Shown here: positions 137 to 35,108 of the stretch, piece after piece
How the letters are laid out: each line of letters opens with the position of its first letter
Position numbering within the stretch: the stretch's first letter is position 1
Virus record (IMG/VR): IMGVR_UViG_3300032285_000820
Span: 1-47,970 of that record
Strand: one strand, 5' to 3'
From: a virus
Length of the DNA: 47,970 nucleotides
Notes under the pieces: model-generated
What the model saw: only the letters and a program-made list of their open reading frames with translations
Databases searched by the model: none
What the model was told of the DNA's origin: nothing
Translations under genes and position numbers: made by a program

Positions 137-158
137 AAAAGGGGCGTTAAGCCCCTTT
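132..158 (-). terminator. Intrinsic terminator, strongest on the minus strand (ends pqqA)
   Basis: Positions 138-145 (AAAGGGGC) pair with 151-158 (GCCCCTTT) around a 5-nt loop. Read on the minus strand, the 8-bp stem is followed directly by a T run (complement of the A run at 135-140), a classic Rho-independent terminator for pqqA. On the plus strand the stem is followed by a broken T tract (TTTAGTTTAG), so it may also end the SprT-like gene. Confidence 0.85.
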
Positions 159-187
159 AGTTTAGTAGCAGTCAGTTACGATAATCA

Positions 188-259
188 TTATTTATTCATT
201 ACGTACATCGTCACTTCAAAGCCAAAACGCATTTCTGTAGCAGCTGGTTTAGTCCACAT
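188..259 (-). CDS. pqqA: PqqA, PQQ precursor peptide (phage-encoded)
   Basis: A 23-codon minus-strand ORF runs from ATG at 259 to TAA at 188-190. An AAGGAG ribosome-binding site lies 7 nt upstream of the start. The peptide begins MWTKPA, continues with R-x-G-F-E-V-T-M-Y and ends MNK. Length, MW-x-K-P-A start and the E-V-T-M-Y core all match PqqA (in other bacteria about 22-29 residues). The Glu and Tyr of E-x3-Y (here E15 and Y19) are the two residues that PqqE/PqqD crosslink and that become PQQ, the redox cofactor of methanol and other alcohol/sugar dehydrogenases. No other pqq gene is visible, so the peptide would feed the host's PqqB-F enzymes. It lies alone on the minus strand with its own terminator, like a moron gene. 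I infer an auxiliary metabolic role; a decoy or regulatory role is also possible. Confidence 0.92.
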   Translation of the reverse strand: MWTKPAATEMRFGFEVTMYVMNK

Positions 260-378
260 AGTAATACTCCTTAAAAGTTAATGTAAAGTTTTCACTCTAC
301 AACTGCATTATTTCAAATTGAATGAAAACGCACATCAAGAAAACCATGATTTACACGGCCGAATTTTCACGCGTAATA

Positions 379-396
379 TGTAAAGTATACTTTACA
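379..396. promoter_or_regulatory. 18-bp perfect palindrome, operator candidate
   Basis: TGTAAAGTATACTTTACA is identical to its own reverse complement over all 18 bases. It lies about 120 bp upstream of the pqqA start and about 300 bp upstream of the plus-strand gene at 693, inside a gene-free stretch. The form TGTAAA-N6-TTTACA is typical of dimeric regulator sites, and the centre contains TATACT-like -10 sequences on both strands. A second TGTAAAG occurs at 282-288. No regulator can be assigned. Confidence 0.5.
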
Positions 397-569
397 CCCG
401 ATTTGAGCTAAGTTCTTGATTTTAAAAAATAATATATAAAAATTTTTTTAGCTAGGTACTTAAAAATGATGACGGGGGGTATTTCTAAAACTTGGATTGG
501 TAGTGTCTGAAATAGTAGACCTAGGTTAGACCGAGAGGCTCATTTTAAAAAAAGGGGTATGGGGGTCGT

Positions 570-587
570 GTTAGTCGCTGGACTAAC
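570..587. repeat. Palindromic repeat copy 1 (GTTAGTC-GCTG-GACTAAC)
   Basis: Perfect 7-bp arms around a 4-nt centre GCTG, extended to 8 bp by flanking T/A. It lies in the leader of the gene at 693, 105 bp upstream of its start. Confidence 0.95.
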
Positions 588-692
588 AGCGTTTACAGCG
601 TGGCATGGCTAGAATCCGTATAATGTGAATTGTCGGTTAGGCAATAACGCTTATCAGACATTATTTATAAACTTTTAAAAAGGAAACTAGCT

Positions 693-1223
693 ATGACAAC
701 AGCAACAATTAAATCAGTAGTTTTAGATGACGTATCAAGAGCATCAATCACAGATGTAGTGAGTAGTGATAGAGCCGTACAAGGTAAAACAAAAAAGATG
801 ACTGACGCGCTTGTAGCACGTGGTGTTAAGTCATCAATGTTGGAAAAGGTTAGCAAAAAGACTGACGCTAACCCCCATAAAGAATTGCATTTTGGTATCA
901 ATCAAGCAATTATTGCGGGATTTCCAATTGAATGGCAATCATTGTTGAGCAAGGATACATCAACGTTATCGCAACAAGACAAGGATACAAAACGTTATGC
1001 GCAACAACAAGTTGGCTCATGGTTCGGTAAAATTCAACGTGCCTTGATTGCTTTCGAAAATCCTAACAAGGCAAGTGCGCCACGTGTGACGCGTACAAGT
1101 CAACAACGTATCATTGACGCGCTCAATGACGCAATAGAGGTTGCGCAAAAAGATGAGGAATTGGATTTTGATATAACAAAATTCATTACCACGCTAAAAA
1201 GCGCGATAGCAATGGTTAAGTAA
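693..1223 (+). CDS. Hypothetical phage protein, 176 aa
   Basis: I do not recognise this protein. The ATG at 693 follows AAAAAGGAAAC at a normal distance. The product is 176 residues, soluble, Lys/Ala/Gln-rich, with no signal peptide or membrane segment. The middle has a long polar stretch (about residues 85-110) leading to W-F-G-K-I-Q-R-A-L, and the C-terminal half looks helical and mixed-charge. It is the first plus-strand gene after pqqA, is monocistronic (a strong terminator follows 10 bp after the stop) and has a palindromic repeat on each side (570 and 1270). A monocistronic early gene with a long leader might be a regulator or a small abundant protein, but no DNA-binding motif is evident. 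Confidence 0.8.
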   Translation: MTTATIKSVVLDDVSRASITDVVSSDRAVQGKTKKMTDALVARGVKSSMLEKVSKKTDANPHKELHFGINQAIIAGFPIEWQSLLSKDTSTLSQQDKDTKRYAQQQVGSWFGKIQRALIAFENPNKASAPRVTRTSQQRIIDALNDAIEVAQKDEELDFDITKFITTLKSAIAMVK

Positions 1224-1232
1224 TAACATCTC

Positions 1233-1265
1233 AAGCCCTAGCCTAAAAAGCTAGGGCTTTTTTTT
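1233..1265 (+). terminator. Rho-independent terminator
   Basis: A 10-bp perfect stem, AAGCCCTAGC at 1233-1242 with GCTAGGGCTT at 1250-1259, encloses a 7-nt loop and is followed by T's to 1265. It ends transcription of the 693-1223 gene. Palindromic repeat copy 2 starts 5 bp further on. Confidence 0.93.
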
Positions 1266-1269
1266 GCCT

Positions 1270-1287
1270 GTTAGTCTTGCGACTAAC
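1270..1287. repeat. Palindromic repeat copy 2 (centre TTGC)
   Basis: Perfect GTTAGTC/GACTAAC arms with centre TTGC, between the terminator and the 3' end of the minus-strand hydrolase gene. It is followed by GATGCCAGTGACT, which also follows copy 3 (as GATACCAGTGACT), so copies 2 and 3 belong to a longer direct repeat flanking that gene. Confidence 0.95.
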
Positions 1288-1333
1288 ATTTGATGCCAGT
1301 GACTTATTTAGGCGTGGGTTAAATTCGGCGTGG

Positions 1334-1708
1334 TCAATAGAACGTGACGTTATTAATTCGTGTCAACTTCTTTTTAGTAAAAGCCCAAAAAGGTTTTACT
1401 CTGTCATCATGAAAGTGCGTAGCTTTTCCAATCGGATTCATGACTTCTCTATTCATTACCTGTAAAGATATTAATTCATAAGTAAGCAAAGTCTTTTCAT
1501 CTATAACATATTTACCTGTCATTACATTTTTAACGCCATCAAATTGATAAGGGGCTTCGGTCACTTTGCATATGTTATTCACATTGTTATTGGCTCGGTT
1601 CATTATGACATAACCTACTCCATGAGTAAGTTCGATATTGTTAGCACCATGTGTTTCACCAATTAATGCGATAGCCATACAAGCAACTTGTGGTAATAAG
1701 TTCACCAT
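1334..1708 (-). CDS. SleB/CwlJ-type cell-wall hydrolase (Hydrolase_2), 124 aa
   Basis: The 124-residue minus-strand protein has the hallmarks of the Hydrolase_2 family. An early G-E-T-H-G carries the predicted catalytic Glu (E18). It is followed by GYVIMNRANN (the family's V-x-N-R segment), I-C-K-V-T-x-A-P-Y-Q-F (QF motif), N-P-I-G-K-A-T-H-F-H (GATHF/YH motif), V-K-P-F-W-A and a terminal NVTFY. Family members cleave peptidoglycan as lytic transglycosylases or amidases. The hydrophobic N-terminus (VACMAIALIG) belongs to the domain and is not a clear signal peptide. The ATG at 1708 follows AGGAGAA by 4 nt. This is a second muralytic enzyme beside the GH24 endolysin at 37.2 kb and lies far from the lysis genes, on the opposite strand to its neighbours. 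Palindromic repeats flank it. Role (superinfection, entry or accessory lysis) is inference. Confidence 0.8.
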   Translation of the reverse strand: MVNLLPQVACMAIALIGETHGANNIELTHGVGYVIMNRANNNVNNICKVTEAPYQFDGVKNVMTGKYVIDEKTLLTYELISLQVMNREVMNPIGKATHFHDDRVKPFWAFTKKKLTRINNVTFY

Positions 1709-1727
1709 ATAGTTCTCCTATTAAAAT

Positions 1728-1745
1728 GTTAGTCCATAGACTAAC
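1728..1745. repeat. Palindromic repeat copy 3 (centre CATA), over the sleB-like gene's predicted start of transcription
   Basis: Perfect GTTAGTC/GACTAAC arms with centre CATA. On the minus strand it begins 2 bp after the predicted -10 hexamer (1748-1753), so it covers the expected +1 and lies 20 bp upstream of the ATG. That placement suits an operator. Confidence 0.95.
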
Positions 1746-1747
1746 AA

Positions 1748-1776
1748 AAGATACCAGTGACTAAAAGAAGCGTAAA
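1748..1776 (-). promoter_or_regulatory. Predicted sigma70-type promoter for the SleB-like gene
   Basis: On the minus strand TTTACG (complement of 1771-1776) and TATCTT (complement of 1748-1753) are separated by 17 bp, and TGG precedes the -10 (extended -10). Each hexamer matches consensus at 4 of 6. Palindromic repeat copy 3 occupies the start site. Confidence 0.45.
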
Positions 1777-1800
1777 GCACAGGGTTGGCTTCGTTTAACT

Positions 1801-1833
1801 GATATGCTGAACTCAGCATATCATAATTTTTTT
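1801..1833. promoter_or_regulatory. 22-bp inverted repeat followed by a T run (operator or terminator)
   Basis: GATATGCTGA (1801-1810) and TCAGCATATC (1813-1822) form a perfect 10-bp inverted repeat with a 2-nt centre, followed on the plus strand by ATAATTTTTTT. As RNA it would form a stem with a short loop and could terminate plus-strand read-through. As DNA it is an operator-like palindrome about 25 bp upstream of the -35 of the minus-strand hydrolase promoter. The sequence does not decide between these. Confidence 0.5.
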
Positions 1834-1861
1834 ATATGCGCAAGGCTTATTTTAAGTTTGT

Positions 1862-2143
1862 ATTGAACCCAATTGAACCTTGTATTGAACCCCGTAAGTC
1901 ATTGATTATTAAGTTTTGTTCGTATTGAACCTATTGAACCCCGTTTTTTGAATGTTTGGCCAAAGAGACCTTACTCTTTTCGTTTTTTATAACTCAAACT
2001 AATTTTTACCCGACACACTAAAAAGCAGGGTTCAAAAGGAACAAAGGTACAAAACGCACTACGACTGAAGGTGTTAAAGAACAAATAAGGTTCAATAGGT
2101 TCAAATACTTTATAATAATATATAATATAATATAATACAATAA
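1862..2143. other. Iteron-like TTGAACC repeats plus AT-rich tract, candidate replication origin
   Basis: Five direct copies of (A)TTGAACC lie at about 1863, 1872, 1884, 1924 and 1933. Three inverted copies GGTTCAA lie at 2029, 2089 and 2099. The pair at 1924-1940 is the reverse complement of 2089-2105 at 16 of 17 positions, giving a large inverted repeat with arms about 150 bp apart. It is followed directly by an almost pure A/T tract (2105-2143, alternating TATAATA units). Clustered iterons next to an AT-rich unwinding region are the usual anatomy of a replication origin. A short minus-strand reading frame across this region has low-complexity hydrophobic content and no ribosome-binding site, so I treat the region as non-coding. 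Confidence 0.5.
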
Positions 2144-2176
2144 GTAATAAAAACATAAACTTTGATAGGTAAAAAC

Positions 2177-2205
2177 TTGACTATGGTATGACTACGTGTT
2201 ATAAT
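2177..2205 (+). promoter_or_regulatory. Strong sigma70 promoter with extended -10 for the early operon
   Basis: TTGACT (2177-2182), a 17-bp spacer and TATAAT (2200-2205), with TGT immediately before the -10 (TGn extended -10). Transcription should begin near 2212. The leader then carries palindromic repeat copy 4 at 2232-2248 before the first gene at 2352. Confidence 0.88.
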
Positions 2206-2231
2206 GTTATTAAGTGGTCGAGGTAGCCCGT

Positions 2232-2248
2232 GTTAGTCAGCGACTAAC
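2232..2248. repeat. Palindromic repeat copy 4 (3-nt centre AGC)
   Basis: Perfect 7-bp arms, but the only copy with a 3-nt centre, giving 17 bp. It lies about 20 nt downstream of the predicted transcription start, in the leader of the early operon. Confidence 0.95.
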
Positions 2249-2351
2249 ATATAGTAAGATGTTTTGGTATGGTATATCCATGACAGGCTCATCAGGCTCA
2301 CGAACAAATCGTTTTATTAAATTATTGATTATCAACTAAAAGGAAACAAAA

Positions 2352-2780
2352 ATGAAAACAGCAAACAGTAAAGCACGTAAGTTAGTCAACGGACTAACAG
2401 AATTTAAAGGTAGCAATACCTTTGCCGAAACCAACGCACCAACTGAAACACGCCCCACATGGTTATATGTAGTCTACTCATATGGCTATCACTTTCCCAT
2501 GTATATCGCAGAATGGACAACCGACGAGAATATCCAGTGGTATGAGAATTCAGACCGATATTCAGTATCAACTTCAAAGCAACAGAACCAACTCAGACCG
2601 AGTAGCCCTACTATCAAAATGGACACCGAAACCATGCGCACATTAGCACGTTATGGCATAGTCGGTGTAGTAGTCCAACCCGAAATGAATACAGGCACAA
2701 GATTGACGGAAGAAGAAATTAACCAAGCAATACATAACATATCAAACTCAAAACTAGCGCACCGATTAAGTGCATGGTAG
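2352..2780 (+). CDS. Hypothetical phage protein, 142 aa (first gene of early operon)
   Basis: I do not recognise a family. The ATG at 2352 follows AGGAAAC. The 142-residue product is soluble, rich in Thr/Asn and aromatic residues in its centre (W-L-Y-V-V-Y-S-Y-G-Y-H-F), and ends in S-A-W. Codons 11-16 (L-V-N-G-L-T) are formed by palindromic repeat copy 5, and the last base of its TAG stop is the first base of copy 6. It is the first gene behind the strong promoter at 2177-2205, so it should be expressed very early. That suits a host-takeover or anti-defence protein, but this is inference from position only. Confidence 0.8.
   Translation: MKTANSKARKLVNGLTEFKGSNTFAETNAPTETRPTWLYVVYSYGYHFPMYIAEWTTDENIQWYENSDRYSVSTSKQQNQLRPSSPTIKMDTETMRTLARYGIVGVVVQPEMNTGTRLTEEEINQAIHNISNSKLAHRLSAW
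2381..2398. repeat. Palindromic repeat copy 5 (centre AACG), inside a gene
   Basis: Perfect arms inside the 2352-2780 gene, read in frame as L-V-N-G-L-T (arms in the frame xxG TTA GTC). Confidence 0.95.
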
Positions 2781-2797
2781 TTAGTCCACCGACTAAC
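2780..2797. repeat. Palindromic repeat copy 6 (centre CACC)
   Basis: Perfect arms starting on the last base of the upstream stop codon and ending 20 bp before the ATG at 2818, just upstream of its ribosome-binding site. Confidence 0.95.
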
Positions 2798-2817
2798 ATT
2801 TTATAAAGGAAACGATT

Positions 2818-3027
2818 ATGAAATACTTATGTAAAGATTGTGGCAGTCAGATTCACGAAGCTAGGGCAAGGTTAGGTTATGCCGTATGCCTTCAATGTGG
2901 CGAGGAAATCGCCAAGCGTAATAGGTTGTCATGGTGTATAGCACCTATGCACAAATCCAACTATATGCTCATCACTAACCACGATGACTTAAAAGGTCTC
3001 AATAACAAAGGAGGATTGGTAAAATGA
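2818..3027 (+). CDS. Small zinc-ribbon protein, 69 aa
   Basis: The ATG at 2818 follows AAAGGAAAC. The 69-residue protein has a four-cysteine zinc-ribbon pattern, YLCKDCGS (C-x2-C) and AVCLQCGE (C-x2-C), about 20 residues apart, with basic residues between and after them. The C-terminal half has no recognisable domain. Small zinc ribbons in phages often bind nucleic acid or protein partners; a target cannot be named. The 3' end overlaps the next start by 4 nt (ATGA), indicating translational coupling. Confidence 0.75.
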   Translation: MKYLCKDCGSQIHEARARLGYAVCLQCGEEIAKRNRLSWCIAPMHKSNYMLITNHDDLKGLNNKGGLVK

Positions 3028-3245
3028 CGAAGCTATTTGAAGTAGAAGTAGAGCAGAAGTTTAGCGTAGTAGACAGGCTAGTATATATAGTGAGAGCCGA
3101 TAACATAGGTGAAGCTATAAAACTTATCGAAGAAGGTCAAGGCAACTTATGCCACACGGAAGAACTTGAACGACAAGATGAGGAGTTATACATAGACACA
3201 GCGATAGTCACTGAAATTGAAGAAATCGAAGGAGAAACTAAATGA
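3024..3245 (+). CDS. Hypothetical acidic protein, 73 aa
   Basis: It starts at the ATGA overlap with the zinc-ribbon gene, behind GGAGGATTGGTAAA. The product is 73 residues and strongly acidic, especially at the C-terminus (E-I-E-E-I-E-G-E). The beginning resembles a small alpha/beta fold (FEVEVEQKF ... VYIVRADNIGEAIKLIEEG), similar in style to short phage proteins that modulate host enzymes. No family recognised. It overlaps the next gene by 4 nt. Confidence 0.75.
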   Translation: MTKLFEVEVEQKFSVVDRLVYIVRADNIGEAIKLIEEGQGNLCHTEELERQDEELYIDTAIVTEIEEIEGETK

Positions 3246-3403
3246 GTTTAATTCAGAGCTATATCGTACAGTATCGTGACTTACCTATTAACACGTTAAT
3301 GAAACTTAAAAAGAAATTGAAACAAGAAGTAGATGTAGATAATGAAACAAAACTTTTAGCAATCGATATTATTTTAAGGGGGACTAAGATATGGAAACAC
3401 TAG
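3242..3403 (+). CDS. Hypothetical small protein, 53 aa
   Basis: ATG at 3242 overlaps the previous TGA (ATGA) and follows AAGGAGAAACTA at a good distance. The 53-residue product starts MSLIQSYIVQYRDLP, has a basic lysine-rich helix (LMKLKKKLKQE) in the middle and ends at TAG 3401-3403. It overlaps the next gene (start 3391) by 13 nt. It is supported by the ribosome-binding site, the overlaps on both sides and the lack of any gap without it. Function unknown. Confidence 0.65.
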   Translation: MSLIQSYIVQYRDLPINTLMKLKKKLKQEVDVDNETKLLAIDIILRGTKIWKH

Positions 3404-3624
3404 ATAAAAAGTTAGTCAGTCGACTAACAAAGCTAGAATGTGATATGCAGGAAATGCATTTAAGGGGCTACGATAAACACGTAGGTATTGCAGAACTTAA
3501 CAAACATATGAGACGTAGCCGAAAGGAACGTATAAAAGAAGTCGTAAAAGAGTTTGTGTTTTATATCGTGCCGTATGTAGTAGCTATGGTTTTAATTTTT
3601 TCAATCATGAGTATGAGAGGATAG
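3391..3624 (+). CDS. Small membrane protein, 77 aa
   Basis: ATG at 3391 follows AAGGGGGACTAAGAT. The 77-residue protein has a soluble charged N-terminus (about 50 residues, Lys/Arg-rich) and one C-terminal transmembrane helix (FVFYIVPYVVAMVLIF followed by SIMSMRG). This topology (cytoplasmic head, tail anchor) is common in early phage membrane proteins. Codons 8-12 (V-S-R-L-T) come from palindromic repeat copy 7. Role unknown. Confidence 0.7.
   Translation: METLDKKLVSRLTKLECDMQEMHLRGYDKHVGIAELNKHMRRSRKERIKEVVKEFVFYIVPYVVAMVLIFSIMSMRG
3411..3428. repeat. Palindromic repeat copy 7 (centre AGTC), inside a gene
   Basis: Perfect arms near the 5' end of the 3391-3624 gene, read as L-V-S-R-L-T. 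With the AGTC centre, GTCGAC lies within the sequence. Confidence 0.95.
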
Positions 3625-3626
3625 TT

Positions 3627-3794
3627 ATGGAATTTATCCATTATTTAGTTTGGTTTGTATGTGGGTTCTTTTGTGGGGCGACGTTAATGCGAGATAAGAT
3701 TAACCGAGAAACACGTAAGCGTTATGAAGAAATGTTAAACGAAATGAAAACGGGCAGACCACGTGTTCGTGAAATTAAGGAGAATGACGAATGA
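3627..3794 (+). CDS. Small N-terminally anchored membrane protein, 55 aa
   Basis: ATG at 3627 lies 2 bp after the previous TAG, behind GAGAGGATAGTT, and the frame ends at TGA 3792-3794. The 55-residue product has an N-terminal hydrophobic helix with two cysteines (YLVWFVCGFFCGATL) and a charged coiled-coil-like tail (Arg/Glu/Lys-rich). It overlaps the next gene by 4 nt (ATGA). It has the look of a small inner-membrane protein; no family recognised. Confidence 0.65.
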   Translation: MEFIHYLVWFVCGFFCGATLMRDKINRETRKRYEEMLNEMKTGRPRVREIKENDE

Positions 3795-4081
3795 AAACAA
3801 TTAAGTTTAGTGTAGTAGCACAAGTGTCACTTGATGAGGACAAGTTAAGAATGATAGGTTCATTGGGCGCAGAGATTACACCCGAGACTTATATCGAGTC
3901 AGTCATTAAAGACCATGTGCAAGACAGAGGTATGTTGATAAACATTAATGTTTTAGAAGGTGACATATATAAAGACGTTAAGGAATATCAGCACACGTTG
4001 ATTAACCACAAAGCCGTCGAGGAACTAGAGCAGGAAATACTAGACGCGAAGGCTTGTATCAATGGCAACTGCGAGGACTAA
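3791..4081 (+). CDS. Hypothetical protein, 96 aa
   Basis: Starts in an ATGA overlap with the previous gene, behind AAGGAGAATGACGA. The 96-residue product begins with a strand-like segment (MKTIKFSVVAQVSL), followed by mixed alpha/beta sequence and a helical acidic C-terminus ending C-I-N-G-N-C-E-D. No membrane segment or catalytic motif is seen and no family is recognised. The next gene begins 2 bp after the stop, so this belongs to the same coupled chain of small early genes. Confidence 0.75.
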   Translation: MKTIKFSVVAQVSLDEDKLRMIGSLGAEITPETYIESVIKDHVQDRGMLININVLEGDIYKDVKEYQHTLINHKAVEELEQEILDAKACINGNCED

Positions 4082-4083
4082 CC

Positions 4084-4248
4084 ATGAGACTAAAATGGGG
4101 TGAAGCATTTGAAGCCTACGATAAGTGGGTGTCATTGGGTGTTAGTCGCAAGACTAACAATGCAGATAAACTTAAATGGTGTACGGGATATGTGTATGCC
4201 AAGCAACAGGAAGTGGAGAAACTAAATGCGACTCACAAAAAGAATTAA
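4084..4248 (+). CDS. Hypothetical small basic protein, 54 aa
   Basis: I chose ATG 4084, 2 bp after the previous stop. An in-frame ATG at 4054 would bury 28 bp in the upstream gene and has no ribosome-binding site. The 54-residue product is basic and tryptophan-containing (MRLKWGEAFEAYDKWV). Codons 20-25 (V-S-R-K-T-N) are formed by palindromic repeat copy 8. It overlaps the next tiny gene by 23 nt. Function unknown. Confidence 0.6.
   Translation: MRLKWGEAFEAYDKWVSLGVSRKTNNADKLKWCTGYVYAKQQEVEKLNATHKKN
4141..4158. repeat. Palindromic repeat copy 8 (centre GCAA), inside a gene
   Basis: Perfect arms inside the 4084-4248 gene, read in the other frame (GTT AGT CGC AAG ACT AAC, V-S-R-K-T-N). Flanking T/A extend the arms to 8 bp. 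Confidence 0.95.
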
Positions 4249-4372
4249 CCGAAAGGAGTATGTGATATTGGCTTGGACTAAAGACGAGGTGATATTGCAG
4301 AACGTACTAGACGCTGATGACATCATTACGAAGTCACGGCGTAGTGTGTATGGTATTCGTAGACCCACTTGA
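4226..4372 (+). CDS. Hypothetical very small protein, 48 aa
   Basis: ATG at 4226 has GGAG 7 nt upstream and the frame runs to TGA at 4370-4372. The 48-residue product begins MRLTKRINRKEYV, has an acidic middle (KDEV ... DADD) and a basic end (SRRSVYGIRRPT). It ends just before the promoter at 4378. The overlap with the previous gene and the good ribosome-binding site favour a real gene, but its size makes this uncertain. A GTG at 4262 right after AAGGAG is an alternative but badly spaced start. Confidence 0.5.
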   Translation: MRLTKRINRKEYVILAWTKDEVILQNVLDADDIITKSRRSVYGIRRPT

Positions 4373-4377
4373 GAACA

Positions 4378-4406
4378 TTGATTAAGATGTTAAAGTATGG
4401 TATACT
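4378..4406 (+). promoter_or_regulatory. Sigma70 promoter with extended -10 upstream of the DUF3150/AAA/VWA genes
   Basis: TTGATT (4378-4383), 17-bp spacer, TATACT (4401-4406) preceded by TGG (extended -10). Expected start of transcription is near 4413, about 40 bp before the ATG at 4454. It gives the trio its own promoter in addition to read-through from 2177. Confidence 0.75.
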
Positions 4407-4453
4407 GTATCATATAGTGGTAAAGTTTATTAAATAACAACAGGAGAATGGAA

Positions 4454-5350
4454 ATGGAAACACTAGAGTTAAATCAGAACCTTGTTAGTCCAACGACTAA
4501 CACAACACCAAGCATATCTTCATCAGCAATGCTTGTAGAACTAAATATCTCATTGTGGACAGGACGTAAGTTTGATAAGAATGTATCACAAGAGATTGAC
4601 ACACAGAAAAACGCTACAACTAGGGCAGGTAATTATCATAAGAAGTTATTTGCAGACGAACCTAAGTTTGAAGCTATCACAAAATTCGCAGGTAATGCTA
4701 GGACTGCACACTATTATCAGACTATGCCATGGTCGGATAGTGGACTACGCTTACTAACAACTCCTTTATTCTTTGAGTATAACAAAAAGATGACGGAAGC
4801 CGATGCCGAATTCAATCGGTTGGTAAGTGAGTTTATCAATGACTATGACAACATGATTGCACGTGCGCATACCAAGCTAGGCAACTTATTTAATCCCGAG
4901 GACTATCCGAGTATAGACGAAGTGGCAGACAAGTATCACTTCAGACTAAAGTATAGCCCCGTTCCCGAAGTCGGTGACTTTAGGGTTGACGTAGGGCAAG
5001 ACGCATTGAAACAACTTAACGAGAGTTATGCCAACTATTATCAAGAGCAACTGAACAATGCATACAAAGATGTATGGCAGAGAACTTATGACGCATTGAA
5101 GTCTATGAGTGATAGGTTAGCAGGTGATAACAAACAAATCTTTAGGGATACTCTTGTCACAAATGTGACTGGCATCGTCGAATTACTCGACAAGTTTAAC
5201 GTGACGAATGATGACGCTATGCGCAAAGCTAAATTAAAAATTACTGACGCATTACGTGGTATCACACCCGACGCGCTACGTGAAGATGATTATTTACGTC
5301 ATGACACTAAACGCAAGGTTGATGAATTATTAAAAGAGTTTGCATGGTAG
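4454..5350 (+). CDS. DUF3150-like protein (partner of MoxR AAA+ / VWA pair), 298 aa
   Basis: The 298-residue protein resembles the DUF3150 family: an N-terminal L-N-I-S-L-W-T-G-R-K segment, A-R-T-A-H-Y-Y-Q-T-M-P-W-S-D-S-G-L-R-L-L about 80 residues in, then a long helical region and a Y-H-F-R-L-K-Y-S-P-V-P segment near the middle. DUF3150 genes are typically found directly before a CobS/MoxR-like AAA+ ATPase and a VWA protein, exactly as here; biochemical function is unknown. ATG 4454 is preferred to the in-frame ATG 4448 because AGGAG (4442-4446) lies 7 nt from 4454 but only 1 nt from 4448. Palindromic repeat copy 9 lies at codons 11-16. The family call rests on motif recognition and context. 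Confidence 0.65.
   Translation: METLELNQNLVSPTTNTTPSISSSAMLVELNISLWTGRKFDKNVSQEIDTQKNATTRAGNYHKKLFADEPKFEAITKFAGNARTAHYYQTMPWSDSGLRLLTTPLFFEYNKKMTEADAEFNRLVSEFINDYDNMIARAHTKLGNLFNPEDYPSIDEVADKYHFRLKYSPVPEVGDFRVDVGQDALKQLNESYANYYQEQLNNAYKDVWQRTYDALKSMSDRLAGDNKQIFRDTLVTNVTGIVELLDKFNVTNDDAMRKAKLKITDALRGITPDALREDDYLRHDTKRKVDELLKEFAW
4484..4501. repeat. Palindromic repeat copy 9 (centre CAAC), inside a gene
   Basis: Perfect arms near the 5' end of the DUF3150-like gene, read as V-S-P-T-T-N (frame GTT AGT Cnn). Confidence 0.95.
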
Positions 5351-5355
5351 TACGT

Positions 5356-5373
5356 GTTAGTCCGTCGACTAAC
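5356..5373. repeat. Palindromic repeat copy 10 (centre CGTC)
   Basis: Perfect arms in the 46-bp gap between the DUF3150-like gene and the AAA+ gene, ending 13 bp before the GGAG ribosome-binding site. Confidence 0.95.
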
Positions 5374-5396
5374 TTAATTTTAAAATGGAGACACAC

Positions 5397-6509
5397 ATGA
5401 AACAATCAGCAGAAAGTTTATTCGCACAATCTATTGATGAGTGCGCAGATAGTATCTTGGCAACAGGTAATAAAGTGACAACATTGGTACAAGGTCATAT
5501 GGGTACAGGTAAGTCAAGTATCCTTAAAATCTTAGCAAGTAAATTGCCCGACCATATCCCATGTTATTTTGACTGCACCACTAAAGATTTAGGTGACTTG
5601 ATGTTGCCGAAAATAGTCAGTGATAGTGACGAGGATTATGTCAAGTTTGTACCGAATGAGGAAATGGGTATGCACCATGATAAGCCAATCATCTTAATGA
5701 TTGATGAGTTTGGCAAAGCGAACCCATCAGTTAAGAACGGCATGATGCGTATTATGTTAGAACGTACAATGGGGAATAAGAAATTGCACCCCGAGTCTAT
5801 CGTATTTGCAACGACTAATCTTGGCACAGAAGGTGTTGGTGACTTACTTATGCCCCACCATAGAAATCGTATCACAGTTATACGAATGAAGAAACCTACT
5901 GCAACTGAATGGATTGAGAACTATGCGCTTAATGCAGGAATACACCCTGCACTTATCATGTGGGTTAAAGAGAATGGTGAACAACTATTTCAGACGTTCG
6001 AGGAAGTCGAGAAACCCGACGACGAAGTAGGTGGTAATCCGTATATCTATCACCCACAGGCTCAACGCCCTGCTTTCTTTACTCCACGTTCAGCAGAGTT
6101 AGCAAGTCATTGGTTATGGGCAAAGGATAAGATAAGTCACAATGCCTTGAAGTCCAACTTGATTGGTACTATCGGCGCACGTGGTGGCGCAGACCTTGAC
6201 GCATATATCGAACTGGTTGACCAACTTCCAACACAGGAAGATATTAAGACGAAACCAACTGATGCCAAAGTACCAGATACAGCATCAGCAGTAGTCATGG
6301 TTGTCTATCGAGCATTGGCAACTATGAACAAAGACTTCATTGACCCGTTCATGGTTTATCTAAACCGACTAGACAAAGAAGCACAAGCATTGTTTGCTAT
6401 GCAAGTACGTAATCCTAAGTACCAAAAACAAGCAATCGTCATGAGTAATAAGAAATTCACCGAGTGGTGTATTGCTAACAACTTCATGTTTAGTGCAGAT
6501 AAAAAATAA
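5397..6509 (+). CDS. MoxR/CobS-type AAA+ ATPase, 370 aa
   Basis: The 370-residue protein carries a Walker A GHMGTGKSS (residues 33-41) and a Walker B with acidic finish (I-I-L-M-I-D-E-F-G-K-A, about residue 100). A sensor-1-like V-F-A-T-T-N-L follows, then a conserved H-H-R-N-R-I segment. This is the single-domain AAA+ core of the MoxR/CobS group, ATPases that remodel a partner together with a VWA protein. The start at 5397 has GGAG 6 nt upstream; an in-frame ATG at 5385 has none. It lies between the DUF3150-like and VWA genes, each gap carrying one palindromic repeat. The substrate is unknown; host-protein remodelling or virion/DNA-complex maturation are possible. Confidence 0.85.
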   Translation: MKQSAESLFAQSIDECADSILATGNKVTTLVQGHMGTGKSSILKILASKLPDHIPCYFDCTTKDLGDLMLPKIVSDSDEDYVKFVPNEEMGMHHDKPIILMIDEFGKANPSVKNGMMRIMLERTMGNKKLHPESIVFATTNLGTEGVGDLLMPHHRNRITVIRMKKPTATEWIENYALNAGIHPALIMWVKENGEQLFQTFEEVEKPDDEVGGNPYIYHPQAQRPAFFTPRSAELASHWLWAKDKISHNALKSNLIGTIGARGGADLDAYIELVDQLPTQEDIKTKPTDAKVPDTASAVVMVVYRALATMNKDFIDPFMVYLNRLDKEAQALFAMQVRNPKYQKQAIVMSNKKFTEWCIANNFMFSADKK

Positions 6510-6510
6510 T

Positions 6511-6528
6511 GTTAGTCGCCCGACTAAC
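6511..6528. repeat. Palindromic repeat copy 11 (centre GCCC)
   Basis: Perfect arms 1 bp after the AAA+ stop codon and directly before TAGGAG of the next gene. Confidence 0.95.
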
Positions 6529-6543
6529 AACTAGGAGAATGAT

Positions 6544-7719
6544 ATGTTAAACATAGGTAAGCAACTAACGGCAGAACAACGTCTTTACAAAGCAACTACC
6601 GACATCATTGGTCGAGATGAATTTGTAGCACTCGCAGGTGTATTGATGATTGGTAGTAAGCAAGTAGTAGATGATGTACCAACTGCTTGTACCAATGGCA
6701 AAGACGAACTGTATGGCAGAGAGTTTGTAGATAAACTATCTGATGCCGAATTCAGATTTGTTATGCTACACGAATGTTATCACAAGATGTATAGACACTT
6801 GAGTACGTGGCAACATCTTAATAAGATTGATGCTATGCGAACTAACCAAGCGTGTGACTATGTGATTAATCTTAAACTTGCAGACACAGACGCATACAAA
6901 CAAGGTTGGATACGTATGCCTAATGGTGGACTCATGGATACACAGTTTGCCAACATGAACACAGAACAAGTGTTTAAGTTATTACCACCTAATGACGGAC
7001 AGGGTAATGGTCAAGGTGGTGGTCAAGGGTTCGATGAACATGATTGGGAAGGTGCTAAAGAACTATCGACTGAGGAAGCCGAAAGTCTAGCACGTGAGAT
7101 TGATGAAGCCGTACGTCAAGGTGCAATCATGGCAGGTAAAATGGGTACAGGTGGACTACGTGACTTGAAGGATTTGCTCGAGCCTAAAAAGAATTGGAAG
7201 GAACTCTTGCGAGAATTCATGACAACTACGTGTGCAGGTAAGGACTACTCAACATGGCGTAAGCCTAATCGTAGGTACATAGGATACGATATGTTAATGC
7301 CTAGTAGTATCAGCGAGTCAGTCGGTGAGATAGTAGTAGCAATCGACACGTCGGGTTCAATCGGTGAGTACGAACTACGTGCCTTCCTATCCGAAGTCAA
7401 AGGTATATGTGACAACGTGAAACCTAGTAAGGTACGAGTCTTGTATTGGGATACTGAGGTGTGTGGTCATGAAGTATATAACCAAGACGAACTCGACAAC
7501 TTACCGAAGTCAACTAAACCGAAAGGTGGTGGTGGAACTATGGTTGAGTGTGTACCAACTTATATGAACGAGCATGGTATCAAGCCCGAGTGTGTAGTCG
7601 TATTAACAGATGGACACTTGGGTGGTTCATGGGGTACATGGAGTGTACCTTTGATATGGTGTATTCAAGGTAATAAACGAGCAACACCTAATGTGGGTGT
7701 GGCAGTACATATTGATTAA
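6544..7719 (+). CDS. DUF2201-type VWA protein with metallopeptidase-like N-domain, 391 aa
   Basis: The 391-residue protein has two parts. Residues 1-140 form a zincin-like domain with L-H-E-C-Y-H-K (HExxH, 76-80) and a nearby H85. After a Gly/Gln-rich linker (about 150-163), residues 260-391 form a VWA-like domain: V-V-A-I-D-T-S-G-S-I (MIDAS DxSxS, 268-272), GGGGT (T332) and V-V-L-T-D-G-H (D356). This two-domain layout matches the DUF2201 (VWA-like plus N-terminal peptidase-like) proteins that pair with MoxR ATPases. The MIDAS residues are intact, so metal-dependent partner binding is expected. Start: AGGAG 7 nt upstream of ATG 6544. With the two genes upstream it probably forms one complex. 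Confidence 0.82.
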   Translation: MLNIGKQLTAEQRLYKATTDIIGRDEFVALAGVLMIGSKQVVDDVPTACTNGKDELYGREFVDKLSDAEFRFVMLHECYHKMYRHLSTWQHLNKIDAMRTNQACDYVINLKLADTDAYKQGWIRMPNGGLMDTQFANMNTEQVFKLLPPNDGQGNGQGGGQGFDEHDWEGAKELSTEEAESLAREIDEAVRQGAIMAGKMGTGGLRDLKDLLEPKKNWKELLREFMTTTCAGKDYSTWRKPNRRYIGYDMLMPSSISESVGEIVVAIDTSGSIGEYELRAFLSEVKGICDNVKPSKVRVLYWDTEVCGHEVYNQDELDNLPKSTKPKGGGGTMVECVPTYMNEHGIKPECVVVLTDGHLGGSWGTWSVPLIWCIQGNKRATPNVGVAVHID

Positions 7720-7722
7720 TAT

Positions 7723-7740
7723 GTTAGTCGACAGACTAAC
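7723..7740. repeat. Palindromic repeat copy 12 (centre GACA)
   Basis: Perfect arms 3 bp after the VWA stop codon and 21 bp before the next ATG, extended to 8 bp by flanking T/A. Confidence 0.95.
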
Positions 7741-7761
7741 ACTAACTTTAAGGAAACTAAA

Positions 7762-8733
7762 ATGGGTGCAATAGAAGCTAAAGTAGCACAAATAGGTAGA
7801 ATAAATAAATTTAAAACATCTGAATATGGTAAATCAATTCATCGGGGTATGTCTACGTTTGATGAAGTAGTAAAAGCATATGAAAGCATTACGCCTGTGA
7901 GAACTAAAGATACAGGCTTACGTATGCAGGACAGACGACCACTCAATAGTCGTTGGAAATGGTGGGAACGTGTGTATAAGTTTGATGATAATACTTATGG
8001 CTTATGTGATGGACATGAATGGTGGTGGGGTGGCAAGGAGGAACTTATGCAGACTTGCCCTATTCTGTGGGAACGTAAAGCCGATGGTGAATATATAACC
8101 ATACGTAATCACTACCACAGATGGCAAACATCATATACAAGGTTTGAATTTCTAGCATGGTACTTGCCTGTCGGAATAACATTTTGGTATAACACAGGTA
8201 AACATTTTATTAACTATGAGGACAAAGATTATGCGTTGCCGAAAATGGTTAGTAATGTGAAGTGGGGTTCGAGTGGAACTATCGAAGTATTACAAGACCA
8301 TAAGATTATATTTAAACGTGAAGGAAATAATTTTACACGTGTTAATAACTTATTGCCTGTATCCACTAAACGTAAGGGTGAACTCGCATATCAATATCAA
8401 GACAAGATATTAAAGTTATGGGATTGGGCAAATGTCATGTTGCCTGTGTTAGGTGATAGCCTAACGCATGAAGGACTAAGTGTTTATTCAGACTCAATGA
8501 CAGATAACAAAAATGGTATGTGGTATTGGCGTCAAGAGAACGACCCTAAACAAGTATTAGAGATACTTGATGATGAAGAACACCCAAAGAAAATGGCACT
8601 TGCAGTATGTGTTGCCTATGCAACTGAGTCTATTGGAATGGGTAGGCACTATCAAGTAGGAGATAAATCACGCCAAAAGTTTGTAGATATGCTACGTAAA
8701 CTTGGTGGTATGTATGATGTTGATTATAAATAA
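7762..8733 (+). CDS. Hypothetical phage protein, 323 aa, Trp/Tyr-rich
   Basis: No family recognised. ATG 7762 follows TTTAAGGAAAC. The 323-residue product is soluble and unusually rich in Trp and Tyr (R-W-K-W-W-E-R-V-Y and H-E-W-W-W-G-G in the first 100 residues), suggesting a beta-rich fold in the middle and a helical C-terminal third. No catalytic motif or membrane helix is seen. It is transcribed with the AAA/VWA trio and is separated from it by a palindromic repeat. The next gene starts 11 bp downstream, so the two are probably co-translated. It could be a client or effector of the AAA/VWA complex, but only its position suggests this. Confidence 0.78.
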   Translation: MGAIEAKVAQIGRINKFKTSEYGKSIHRGMSTFDEVVKAYESITPVRTKDTGLRMQDRRPLNSRWKWWERVYKFDDNTYGLCDGHEWWWGGKEELMQTCPILWERKADGEYITIRNHYHRWQTSYTRFEFLAWYLPVGITFWYNTGKHFINYEDKDYALPKMVSNVKWGSSGTIEVLQDHKIIFKREGNNFTRVNNLLPVSTKRKGELAYQYQDKILKLWDWANVMLPVLGDSLTHEGLSVYSDSMTDNKNGMWYWRQENDPKQVLEILDDEEHPKKMALAVCVAYATESIGMGRHYQVGDKSRQKFVDMLRKLGGMYDVDYK

Positions 8734-8744
8734 AGGAGACAACT

Positions 8745-9695
8745 ATGAGAGAAACAATTAAAAGTATTATGGAACACTCAAACAATAAAGATATTGTTGG
8801 GAAGATGTGTGAGGATACTAAAGAGTATGGTTGGGATAAGTGGGTAAGTGGGTATCCGACAGATGACAAGATGAAACCCTTATTGGAGATGATATTAACG
8901 GCTATGCCGAATATAAAAATCTATCCACGAAGCACATCAAGACTTATAAAACCTACACAAGAAATACGTATCGTGCAAGACTTTTATTTATATACGGATA
9001 CTTGCGCGTTTCCGTTAGGTCATGTTGGGTTCAAGGACTACACAGTCGGTCGAGGTGAAGGTACTGCAACGTATGGTGTATATAGTCGTAAGATACAGAA
9101 TGCCAAGTACCATGATAGTCGTGAGGAATTTCATATGATTATGACATCTAATATTGACAAGGCATTCAAAGCAGTTAAGACGTATGCCGTACCATACACA
9201 GACAAAGAACTTGCTAAAGAATATTTTGATGGCTTATCAAGTAAAGTTAATGATACGGCAAGAGGTATCAAACGTGACTTAGATAATCTCGTAGGTAAAA
9301 TTAAATGGGGCAGTGACAAAAATGTTATAGAGGAACTGCTTTATTTAAAAAGTCAAGGTATAAAGTTTAAGACAGAAGTATTTAATGAGGTTGCAAATAG
9401 TATTCAAGAAGCGTATGAGAAAGTTAGGGAAGAAGAAAGTCGCAAGGTCGGTGCATTATTTGTACATTTCAGAAAAGTAGGTGATGATATGTATGCTGAT
9501 GTTGAGGAACTATCTGATGTAAGAAGCAAACGTGATGCAGAGTTTGTTAGTCCGCCGACTACCTACTTAGCTTCGGAACTTCCTGAACATATACTCAACG
9601 GCGTATCTGTGCTTAACATCTTACAAGATGGGCAATATGTAGCACGTATCGGACAAAAGATTGACAATGAAACATTTTGGTTAGAGAGGGGATAA
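8745..9695 (+). CDS. Hypothetical phage protein, 316 aa
   Basis: ATG 8745 follows AAAGGAGAC. The 316-residue protein is not recognised. Residues 1-115 contain an alpha/beta-looking part with a G-R-G-E-G-T-A-T-Y-G-V-Y-S-R-K segment. Residues 130-245 are helical and charged, probably coiled-coil in part (Y-E-K-V-R-E-E-E-S-R-K). A C-terminal section follows. The imperfect palindromic repeat copy 13 encodes F-V-S-P-P-T-T near residue 270. It lies one base upstream of the next gene. The weight and position next to the 323-residue gene suggest a pair, but no function can be given. Confidence 0.78.
   Translation: MRETIKSIMEHSNNKDIVGKMCEDTKEYGWDKWVSGYPTDDKMKPLLEMILTAMPNIKIYPRSTSRLIKPTQEIRIVQDFYLYTDTCAFPLGHVGFKDYTVGRGEGTATYGVYSRKIQNAKYHDSREEFHMIMTSNIDKAFKAVKTYAVPYTDKELAKEYFDGLSSKVNDTARGIKRDLDNLVGKIKWGSDKNVIEELLYLKSQGIKFKTEVFNEVANSIQEAYEKVREEESRKVGALFVHFRKVGDDMYADVEELSDVRSKRDAEFVSPPTTYLASELPEHILNGVSVLNILQDGQYVARIGQKIDNETFWLERG
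9546..9563. repeat. Imperfect palindromic repeat copy 13 (GTTAGTC-CGCC-GACTACC)
   Basis: The only copy with an arm mismatch (GACTACC instead of GACTAAC), inside the 8745-9695 gene and read as V-S-P-P-T-T. It is also the only copy in the middle to late part of a long gene. Confidence 0.8.
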
Positions 9696-9696
9696 T

Positions 9697-10116
9697 ATGC
9701 AACATCAACTATCAAGAGTAGAACAGATTGAAGCGCAAGTCATTACAGACTTATTCAAGAGTGTGCATAGCAGAGGAGAAAAGATACATGACGTTTTAAG
9801 TGACGCTAATGTTGAAGCACTCCTTAATATGTTAGCAGAACAACCTATCTATCGTGTGACAATACATGACAGAACAGGAGAGGTTAATACAGATTGTTAT
9901 GATTTGTTAGAAAACTTTGCACCCGAATTAAAAATGCGTTATGATAATATAAATGCATTACCTAAGTGGGCGCAGGAGAAGTTAGCCGTACTTATGGTAT
10001 TAGACCCCGACAAAGTGAACAACGATGTAGTCGGTGTAGGGAGACGTATTAGCCGTAATATCTATTGGCTATACAAGGAGAACGAGAATGGCAACAACCC
10101 CCGAGGGGAAAGTTAA
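9697..10116 (+). CDS. Hypothetical protein, 139 aa
   Basis: ATG 9697 lies one base after the previous stop, behind GAGAGGGGATAAT. The 139-residue product is mostly helical and soluble, with an acidic first half and an R-R-I-S-R-N-I-Y-W-L-Y segment near the C-terminus. No domain recognised. It overlaps the nuclease gene that follows by 29 nt in another frame, which suggests translational coupling with it. Function unknown. Confidence 0.75.
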   Translation: MQHQLSRVEQIEAQVITDLFKSVHSRGEKIHDVLSDANVEALLNMLAEQPIYRVTIHDRTGEVNTDCYDLLENFAPELKMRYDNINALPKWAQEKLAVLMVLDPDKVNNDVVGVGRRISRNIYWLYKENENGNNPRGES

Positions 10117-10396
10117 GAAACAAGTGCGCTTAGTCTTGGATAGGCTAGGCGCATATTATGTGATGCCAGTCACTAACGGATTTGGGAAGCAAGGTGCGCC
10201 CGATTTTTTAGTGTGCTATCAAGGATTATTTTTTGGTATAGAATGTAAAGCAGGTAAGGGTAAGACCACTGCATTACAAGAACTTAATCTAAAACATATA
10301 CAAGATGCAGGGGGAACTGCATTAGTCGTATATGAACATGATGTAGTAAATTTAGAAAATCAGTTAGTCGGTCGACTAACATCATTAGGAGAATGA
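10088..10396 (+). CDS. VRR-NUC domain nuclease, 102 aa
   Basis: The 102-residue protein is a minimal PD-(D/E)xK nuclease of the VRR-NUC type: G-A-P-D-F-L-V (D39), strand F-F-G-I-E-C-K (E52-x-K54), and a following helix with A-L-Q-E (Q64). Stand-alone phage VRR-NUC proteins are predicted structure-selective or Holliday-junction nucleases used in replication and recombination. ATG 10088 follows AAGGAGAACGAGA. The gene's last codons (L-V-G-R-L-T) are formed by palindromic repeat copy 14. It overlaps the upstream gene by 29 nt. Confidence 0.85.
   Translation: MATTPEGKVKKQVRLVLDRLGAYYVMPVTNGFGKQGAPDFLVCYQGLFFGIECKAGKGKTTALQELNLKHIQDAGGTALVVYEHDVVNLENQLVGRLTSLGE
10363..10380. repeat. Palindromic repeat copy 14 (centre GGTC), last copy
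   Basis: Perfect arms at the 3' end of the VRR-NUC gene, read as L-V-G-R-L-T, and 19 bp before the next start at 10399. No further copy was found to the right in the window. Confidence 0.95.
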
Positions 10397-12687: not shown

Positions 12688-12857
12688 TTCCGTTTAGTCA
12701 TGCAGTATTAGATAGTGATGGCGAAGTCTTACGCAAATATAGATGGAGTGCCAAAGAAGCCAAGTGGCATAAAGAACAAGGCAAGAATGTAGTTGCATTA
12801 CCTAAAGAAGTTGAAAAACCATTTAACACTAACGATTATGAGGAAGCCCCCTTCTGA
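12684..12857 (+). CDS. Hypothetical small protein, 57 aa
   Basis: I chose ATG 12684 (ATGA overlap, GGAAAGAAGTAGA upstream) over the in-frame ATG at 12666, which overlaps the previous gene with no ribosome-binding site. The 57-residue product starts MIPFSHAVLDSDGEVLRKYRWS and contains K-E-A-K-W-H-K-E-Q-G-K-N-V-V-A-L-P-K, a pattern seen in many small phage proteins of unknown role. It overlaps the next start by one base. Confidence 0.6.
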   Translation: MIPFSHAVLDSDGEVLRKYRWSAKEAKWHKEQGKNVVALPKEVEKPFNTNDYEEAPF

Positions 12858-13486
12858 TGAATGAACCAACAATACAGATGATATTTCCAATCCCTATTAT
12901 GTTTACAGATATAGGTAGGGACTTTACTCAAGTTGAATTAGCTTTTGTTCAATCTCATTCAACCAAGGATAAAACTAATCGTAATGTAGGCAACATTACT
13001 TCTAATAACAGCTACATATTAGAAGAACCCGAAATGTCAGATATAAAAGTACTACTTACAAAAGCTATTAATATGTATGTACAAAAAATATATAAACCAA
13101 AATATCCTGTGGAAGCATATATCACACAATCATGGTTAAATTATACTGCCAAGGGAGAATACCATCATGTTCATGACCACCCTAATAGTTTTATATCGGG
13201 TGTGCTGTACATACAAACTGATGCTACTAAAGATAAGATTACATTTCATAAAAAAGGGTATAGACAAATACAGTTATCAACAGATGAGTATGATATTTAT
13301 AACTCTGATTCATGGTGGTTTAATGTTAGTACAGGGGGAATTGTAATGTTCCCATCTAGTACTACACATAATGTAGAAAATGTTATATCTGATGAAACAA
13401 GAATTAGTTTAGCATTTAATACCTTTGTCAAGGGTACTCTTGGTAATAAAGAATTATTAACCGAACTTATAACTAAGGAAATATAG
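12857..13486 (+). CDS. 2OG-Fe(II) oxygenase-like protein (TIGR02466-type), 209 aa
   Basis: The 209-residue protein begins with the I-F-P-I-P-I-M segment typical of this family. It has S-W-L-N-Y (92-96), the metal-binding stretch H-H-V-H-D-H-P-N-S-F-I-S-G-V-L-Y (103-118), T-H-N-V (H171) and R-I-S-L-A-F-N (R182). These fit the HxD...H...R facial triad and 2-oxoglutarate-binding Arg of the cupin-like Fe(II)/2OG oxygenases. Such proteins are frequent in aquatic phages; substrates (protein, DNA base or a small metabolite) are mostly unknown. It starts at the overlap with the previous gene and ends 3 bp before the DNA polymerase, so it is co-expressed with replication genes. Confidence 0.7.
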   Translation: MNEPTIQMIFPIPIMFTDIGRDFTQVELAFVQSHSTKDKTNRNVGNITSNNSYILEEPEMSDIKVLLTKAINMYVQKIYKPKYPVEAYITQSWLNYTAKGEYHHVHDHPNSFISGVLYIQTDATKDKITFHKKGYRQIQLSTDEYDIYNSDSWWFNVSTGGIVMFPSSTTHNVENVISDETRISLAFNTFVKGTLGNKELLTELITKEI

Positions 13487-23252: not shown

Positions 23253-23278
23253 GGCCTCTGTTCAACAGGGGCCTTTTT
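23253..23278 (+). terminator. Rho-independent terminator at the convergence point
   Basis: GGCCTCTGT (23253-23261) pairs with ACAGGGGCC (23265-23273, one G-U) around a 3-nt loop, followed by TTTTT (23274-23278). The T run overlaps the stop codon of the minus-strand 2033-residue gene (23277-23279), so the two transcription units meet here with no spare sequence. On the minus strand there is no T run after the stem. Confidence 0.88.
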
Positions 23279-34200: not shown

Positions 34201-34235
34201 ATTTTACTCCTATAACATATTAGCGTATCTTACCA

Positions 34236-35108
34236 TTAATATAAGGCAGATACAAACGTTGCTGTTAAAATAATTGATGGGGATGCTGGGGTTACAGGGC
34301 TTGTTCCAGGTGCATATGTAGCACATACTGTATTACCTGTAGTAGATGCAAATACAAGTTGAATATAATCATTTGCATTTATAGGTGTAACTAAATTCCA
34401 CGAAATAATAGCCGTACCTGCAACACCACCATGAATGGCAGGAACTGTAGCAACACCTGCACTATATGGAATATCTACCCCATTTTGCCTAAACCATAAT
34501 GTTACGTTATCAATAGTGCCATCAAAAGAAACCATCTGAACGCTGAACTGTATATTATAAATACCAGCAGTAGAAAATACTACTTTAGTTTTATCCGTAG
34601 GGTCAATAGATACCCCATTACTAGAAGTTGTTTGAAGTAAAGTTACAGCTGCGGCAGTTGTAGGTGAGGCTAAATTTTGAGCTTCAGTTATCGTAGCGCC
34701 AGCGGTATGAGCAGCTTTTGTAGAACCATATGTACCACGAGTAATACCTGTAAATGAAGTAGCTGTTTTACCTGTATAAGTAATAATTTCTGTACCAATA
34801 ATAATTGCACCAGCCGTTAGTGCAAACTGAGCTGTTGAACCTACAACAATGTTCGCTGTTGATACGTTTGTAATACTATTAGTTAAAGTAGTAATACCAT
34901 CTTGATAAAATGCACCATTAGGGAATTTTAAAAATGCGCCACCTATATTAGAACTAAATGGTTGAGCAAAGTTGTCGATTTCGTTGAAATATAATCGAAG
35001 TGCATTAAGTAATTGGTCTTGGTATTGTTGAGTATATTCAACAGGCGCAATAAGTAAGTTGGGTGCCTTAGGCGGACGAAGCGTAAAGGTTTTTAAAGGC
35101 GTTACCAT
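34236..35108 (-). CDS. Putative tail-associated structural protein, beta-rich, 290 aa
   Basis: The 290-residue protein starts with a short linker (F-T-L-R-P-P-K-A-P-N-L) and helix, then repeated Thr/Ala/Ser-rich beta segments. These include an I-I-I-G-T-E-I-I-T-Y-T-G-K-T-A-T-S-F-T motif (a turn-rich insertion seen in phage tail proteins) and a C-terminal half resembling a C1q/TNF-like jelly roll (G-I-Y-N-I-Q-F-S-V-Q, then V-T-L-W-F-R-Q-N-G). Similar modules form tail-tip or adaptor proteins. It starts at a TAATG overlap with the nozzle gene upstream. Confidence 0.5.
   Translation of the reverse strand: MVTPLKTFTLRPPKAPNLLIAPVEYTQQYQDQLLNALRLYFNEIDNFAQPFSSNIGGAFLKFPNGAFYQDGITTLTNSITNVSTANIVVGSTAQFALTAGAIIIGTEIITYTGKTATSFTGITRGTYGSTKAAHTAGATITEAQNLASPTTAAAVTLLQTTSSNGVSIDPTDKTKVVFSTAGIYNIQFSVQMVSFDGTIDNVTLWFRQNGVDIPYSAGVATVPAIHGGVAGTAIISWNLVTPINANDYIQLVFASTTGNTVCATYAPGTSPVTPASPSIILTATFVSALY

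What the first reader, a model, noticed from the sequence alone, without database searches (positions are those of the whole stretch)
188..259. Phage-encoded PqqA, precursor of the cofactor PQQ
A complete 23-codon pqqA with its own ribosome-binding site and terminator sits on the phage genome. The E-x3-Y core is intact. PQQ is essential for methanol dehydrogenase of methylotrophs, so the phage could keep the methanol-oxidising route supplied during infection, or swamp/regulate the host PQQ pathway. I do not know a published phage pqqA and cannot search; the gene is so short that automatic annotation would easily miss it.
Basis: partly seen in the sequence, partly recalled or inferred. Interest (0 to 1): 0.88.

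Follow-up and report, generated by a model that had tools for sequence, protein, structure and literature searches.

The report
Phage-borne pqqA cassette in methylotroph phages
A virus of methanol-eating bacteria carries a self-contained 23-codon gene for the peptide from which the cofactor PQQ is made, and the same tiny, mostly unannotated gene turns up in many unrelated viruses of these bacteria, including nine sequenced isolates, so they probably top up the host's methanol-burning machinery during infection.

Summary
Confirmed: 188-259(-) encodes MWTKPAATEMRFGFEVTMYVMNK, a full-length PqqA (PF08042 6e-11; TIGR02107 2e-10) with the E15-x3-Y19 core, an AAGGAG ribosome site and a terminator. 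It is probably not a host-phage chimera: phage-like sequence lies on both sides, and the closest relatives (88-95% aa) have the same junction with about 195 bp less and no pqqA. So it looks like a small cassette. Its leader is shared with otherwise unrelated phages (77-91% nt), whereas matches to hosts mostly stop 12-24 nt upstream of the start. Nine Methylophilales/Methylophilaceae isolate records (P19250A, Venkman, MEP301, MEP401, MEP402, Melnitz x4) carry it, none annotated as PqqA. Each of 50 viral records checked carries exactly one copy, none carries pqqE, and one also carries a PQQ methanol dehydrogenase. Hosts carry a median of 4 copies (up to 12). This function is inferred, not shown. 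Prior art: one Lake Baikal T4-like virus with pqqA (PMC7678222). New here: the breadth, the cassette anatomy and its exchange between phages.

The parts
188..259 (-). pqqA, 23 codons, MWTKPAATEMRFGFEVTMYVMNK
   Evidence: PF08042 and TIGR02107 over curated cut-offs
267..272 (-). Shine-Dalgarno AAGGAG, 7 nt from the ATG
   Evidence: sequence; an SD-like site in 182 or more of 186 viral copies
282..301 (-). leader hairpin TGTAGAGT-GAAA-ACTTTACA, at or near the predicted 5' end of the mRNA
   Evidence: shared by seven phages; covariation weak with seven sequences; not seen in 130 host upstreams
307..315 (-). candidate extended -10 promoter element TGAAATAAT
   Evidence: aligned TGnnATAAT/TATAAT-like site in phages sharing the leader; consensus match only, not shown to work
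138..158 (-). intrinsic terminator of pqqA (palindromic, may also serve the + strand ORF ending at 136)
   Evidence: terminator scan; similar stem at L311 3303-3325
158..405 (.). stretch holding the insert: about 250 bp here where relatives L310/L311 have about 55-75 bp
   Evidence: comparison with L310/L311
2..136 (+). C-terminal end of a metallopeptidase-like ORF (HEMTH motif), left flank
   Evidence: 35% aa match to an ORF at the corresponding place in L310/L311, there in opposite orientation; weak PHROG match
406..1223 (+). shared phage early region and first rightward gene, right flank
   Evidence: continuous nucleotide match to L310 from 406 on

Best explanation
The phage carries an autonomous expression cassette for PqqA, the ribosomal peptide whose Glu15 and Tyr19 are cross-linked and cut out to become PQQ. 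In an infected Methylophilaceae cell the host's PqqB-E enzymes would process phage PqqA like host PqqA. The phage copy would keep PQQ-dependent methanol dehydrogenase, the cell's entry of energy and carbon, charged during phage production. Shown here: intact coding cassette, purifying selection, recurrence in unrelated phages, no pqqE in the phages, restriction to methylotroph phages among named isolates. Inferred: expression in infection, processing by host enzymes, benefit to the phage.
For: Curated family matches. Own RBS and terminator. pN/pS 0.19, and 0.29 at codons left free by the search pattern. Exactly one pqqA in each of 50 viral records, pqqE in none, a PQQ methanol dehydrogenase in one. 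Leader shared between unrelated phages and not with hosts. Host lineages amplify pqqA, and only pqqA, themselves.
Against: No expression, biochemical or fitness data. Hosts already carry several copies, so need is not obvious. The closest relatives of this phage lack it at this site, though their host is unknown. Host of the window phage is inferred from pqqA only.
Confidence: 0.72

Rival explanations
1. The stretch is an assembly chimera or host contamination and the phage has no pqqA.
For: pqqA lies 188 bp from the end of a linear record; the DNA is very close to Methylophilus copies; collinear relatives lack it; some 'phage' hits are host contamination.
Against: Phage-like sequence on both sides; host similarity covers only the gene and mostly 12-24 nt upstream, while the leader matches other viruses; complete isolate genomes carry the gene.
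Confidence: 0.04
2. The short host-identical DNA serves as a recombination or attachment site and not as a gene.
For: Hosts carry several near-identical copies, which would make good targets.
Against: 28 different DNA sequences for one peptide and pN/pS well below 1; RBS and terminators are kept.
Confidence: 0.04
3. The phage peptide acts as regulator or decoy: extra PqqA titrates PqqD/PqqE or switches host pqq expression, so that PQQ supply is changed rather than raised.
For: PqqA binds PqqD and PqqE (PMC10906245); a single strongly expressed copy could swamp them.
Against: Full-length substrate with all conserved residues, close to host sequence; a decoy would be free to lose E15 and Y19, which are kept in every copy (with pattern bias; isolates found by tblastn keep them too).
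Confidence: 0.1
4. A cassette carried by hitch-hiking, with little effect on infection.
For: 72 bp, low cost; absent from the nearest relatives at this site.
Against: Purifying selection and recurrence across many unrelated phages, one copy each.
Confidence: 0.08

Closest known systems
Host PqqA of Methylophilaceae (PF08042 / TIGR02107)
   Same: Same peptide; DNA differs from the best host copy held at 2 of 72 bases, both synonymous
   Different: Free-standing in a phage, with a leader not found in hosts, one copy, no pqqBCDE beside it
Lake Baikal T4-like methylotroph virus VP_266 (PMC7678222)
   Same: Phage-borne PqqA proposed to boost methanol oxidation
   Different: Different phage lineage; there reported for one population beside methanol dehydrogenase; cassette structure and spread not described in the passages read
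Cyanophage psbA (photosystem D1) auxiliary gene, from general knowledge
   Different: psbA encodes a protein that turns over; pqqA encodes a peptide consumed as cofactor substrate

Membership tests
PqqA (PF08042, TIGR02107) | Whole-protein score over curated cut-offs | tested here: met
   42.4 against 21.1 bits and 40.4 against 20 bits
PqqA (PF08042, TIGR02107) | Glu-x3-Tyr pair that becomes PQQ | tested here: met
   E15 and Y19
PqqA (PF08042, TIGR02107) | Cross-linking by PqqE with PqqD | not testable with these tools
   needs biochemistry
Phage auxiliary metabolic gene | Encoded on a phage genome and not on host DNA | tested here: met
   phage-like flanks here, complete isolate genomes elsewhere
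Phage auxiliary metabolic gene | Expressed in infection and alters host metabolism | not testable with these tools
   no expression data
Moron-like insert (independent unit between phage operons) | Extra unit relative to close relatives, with its own expression signals | tested here: met
   about 195 bp more than L310/L311; RBS and terminator; the promoter is a consensus match only

The most novel reading that the evidence does not exclude
A small pqqA expression cassette is a near-universal, horizontally traded accessory of Methylophilaceae phages. It has a leader seen in phages and not in hosts, is exchanged between unrelated phages and replaced at a fixed locus, and is kept because the consumed precursor limits PQQ once host expression is shut down.
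Probability: 0.55. Interest if true: 0.78.

Novelty: new member of a known kind. Interest (0 to 1): 0.63.

Why it matters
It points to a shared metabolic target of phages of an abundant group of methanol oxidisers in lakes and coastal seas, missed because the gene has 23 codons and is not annotated as PqqA in the isolate records found. It suggests that a consumed ribosomal-peptide precursor, and not an enzyme, is the bottleneck worth carrying, which is directly testable in existing phage-host pairs. It also gives a host marker: pqqA on a viral contig suggests a PQQ-using, probably methylotrophic, host.

Tried and rejected
Hits of the second pattern that a strict regex missed looked like chance, but HMM scoring showed nearly all to be real pqqA with T or S at position 4. 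I then considered the T4 type to be phage-specific; host genomes carry it too (80 of 150), so that idea was dropped. 'Acinetobacter phage MD-2021a' is host contamination. I first labelled the window phage N4-like from its HNH/ATPase genes; a structural gene instead matches DSL-LC04 and HTVC023P-type phages of about 60 kb, so the label was dropped (it still stands in notebook entry 2). A search with the first rightward gene found no confirmed relative by pattern. Rfam found nothing convincing. Hairpin covariation is suggestive only. General hairpin counts upstream of viral pqqA do not clearly exceed shuffles. The isolate papers searched do not mention phage pqqA. I could not list every Methylophilales phage in the collection (MEP431-434 and Venkman EXVC038S are in the taxonomy, but were not found), so the nine isolates are not a proportion.

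Full report
WHAT IS THERE. Window 188-259 on the minus strand is an intact 23-codon gene, MWTKPAATEMRFGFEVTMYVMNK. It scores twice the curated cut-offs of Pfam PqqA (6.4e-11) and of the NCBIfam equivalog TIGR02107 (1.8e-10). Glu15 and Tyr19, the residues that become PQQ, are present. AAGGAG lies 7 nt before the ATG and an 8-pair terminator follows at 158-138.

THE VIRUS. The window is a whole linear virus record of 47,970 bases. It encodes a phage DNA polymerase, helicase, primase-type protein and tail proteins. A structural protein is closest to DSL-LC04, a phage of about 62 kb assembled from Dishui Lake, and to HTVC023P-type phages. The record is probably a fragment: an ORF is open at each end.

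NOT A CHIMERA, BUT AN INSERT. The closest contigs, L310 and L311, share 88-95% aa identity in three core genes and are collinear. Nucleotide similarity to L310 runs without break from window 406 to 2400. On the other side of pqqA there is a similar terminator stem and a metallopeptidase-like ORF; L310/L311 have a related ORF there in opposite orientation (35% aa, E 8e-4). Between the terminator and the shared region the window has about 250-275 bp and the relatives 55-75 bp: about 195 bp more here, with pqqA inside. None of 38 relatives carries PF08042, although many are fragments and that search had no positive control in the same call. The gene was therefore gained here, or lost there, as a compact unit.

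A PHAGE-TYPE CASSETTE. Similarity of the unit to host genomes mostly stops 12-24 nt upstream of the ATG, and at 45 nt in the longest case listed. The best full-length host copy held differs at two synonymous positions of 72; a Methylophilus methylotrophus copy differs at one of the 54 bases compared. By contrast, similarity to viral contigs L021, L055, L046, L096 and L089 runs 70-90 nt upstream at 77-91%, though these contigs share at most one ORF with the window in the stretches held. The shared leader has an extended -10-like element and a hairpin, TGTAGAGT-GAAA-ACTTTACA; the hairpin motif is absent from 130 host upstreams. Two of its eight pairs change on both sides; with seven sequences the shuffle control does not separate this from chance, while slid pairings do far worse. 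Isolate P19250A (L304) and contig L096 have 84-95% identical flanking proteins at one locus. P19250A carries a T-type peptide (MWTTP) with another leader; L096 carries a K-type peptide (MWTKP) with the window-type leader. This is evidence of cassette replacement at one site. In the more distant L042 the unit is inverted relative to its neighbours.

HOW WIDESPREAD. tblastn of the peptide against 50,697 phage records hits nine Methylophilales/Methylophilaceae isolate records (P19250A, Venkman, MEP301, MEP401, MEP402, four Melnitz), one uncultured podovirus and two Acinetobacter records, of which the one inspected is host contamination. None is named PqqA: no feature is annotated in most, and an antisense hypothetical ORF covers it in Melnitz-1 and MW202481. 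I read 187 viral copies; the 72-nt ones make 159 distinct sequences. At 40% shared ORFs the records form 65 groups, inflated by short contigs. Of 50 records examined each carries exactly one pqqA, none carries pqqE over the cut-off, and one 72-kb record also carries a 624-aa PQQ methanol dehydrogenase-type gene.

SELECTION. pN/pS is 0.19 over the viral copies, and 0.29 at codons the first search pattern leaves free. Thirty copies of the window's peptide are written in 28 different DNAs. The peptide, not the DNA, is what is kept.

THE HOST SIDE. 149 of 150 Methylophilaceae genomes carry pqqA, median 4 and maximum 12 copies. The literature reports 3-12 pqqA in this family with typically one copy of the other pqq genes (PMC4109929), and five pqqA in a PQQ-producing methylotroph (PMC9851590). 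Hosts have K-type and T-type peptides and the viruses have both.

MECHANISM. PqqA is consumed one per PQQ while the enzymes are catalysts (established pathway knowledge). A phage that stops host expression would lose PqqA supply first, and a 72-bp gene with its own signals is the cheapest correction; methanol dehydrogenase depends on PQQ. In this phage 13 copies of an inverted repeat, GTTAGTC-N3-4-GACTAAC, punctuate the rightward gene block. pqqA lies outside that set on the other strand, which fits an independently expressed unit. Expression, processing and benefit are inferred.

PRIOR KNOWLEDGE. A Lake Baikal metagenomic study (PMC7678222) reported PqqA in a T4-like virus population and proposed the same role. 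The isolate papers searched do not mention it. The kind is known; the prevalence, the free-standing cassette and its exchange among phages appear to be new within the library searched.

Noticed in passing
window 570-10380 (13 sites, all + strand): Inverted repeat GTTAGTC-N3-4-GACTAAC with a conserved stem and variable loop, mostly between genes of the rightward block; 13 found, none in 100 shuffles. Also 11-12 times in L310/L311. Candidate phage operator or hairpin promoter.
   Followed up: partly
window 379-396: Perfect 18-bp palindrome TGTAAAGTATACTTTACA about 120 bp upstream of pqqA, not in L310/L311; possible operator.
   Followed up: no
L141 / L450 (record G222, 72 kb): Virus record with both pqqA (41887-41943) and a 624-aa PQQ methanol dehydrogenase-type gene with an apparent signal peptide (34049-35731).
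   Followed up: partly
L018 (record G192, 356 kb): A 356-kb viral contig, jumbo-phage size, carries one pqqA.
   Followed up: no
L131, L161, L134: Divergent viral PqqA such as MKWETPSFEDLRFGFEVTMYINASN and MKWSKPTYQKLRLGFEVTMYFKQV, perhaps from phages of other PQQ-using hosts.
   Followed up: no
L309 (CAKLQF020000010): 'Acinetobacter phage MD-2021a' record carries ppk and pqqBCD: bacterial contamination labelled as phage.
   Followed up: yes
window 23277-29378 and 12857-13486: A 2033-aa protein with a DarB-like C-terminal part, and a 2OG-Fe(II) oxygenase.
   Followed up: no
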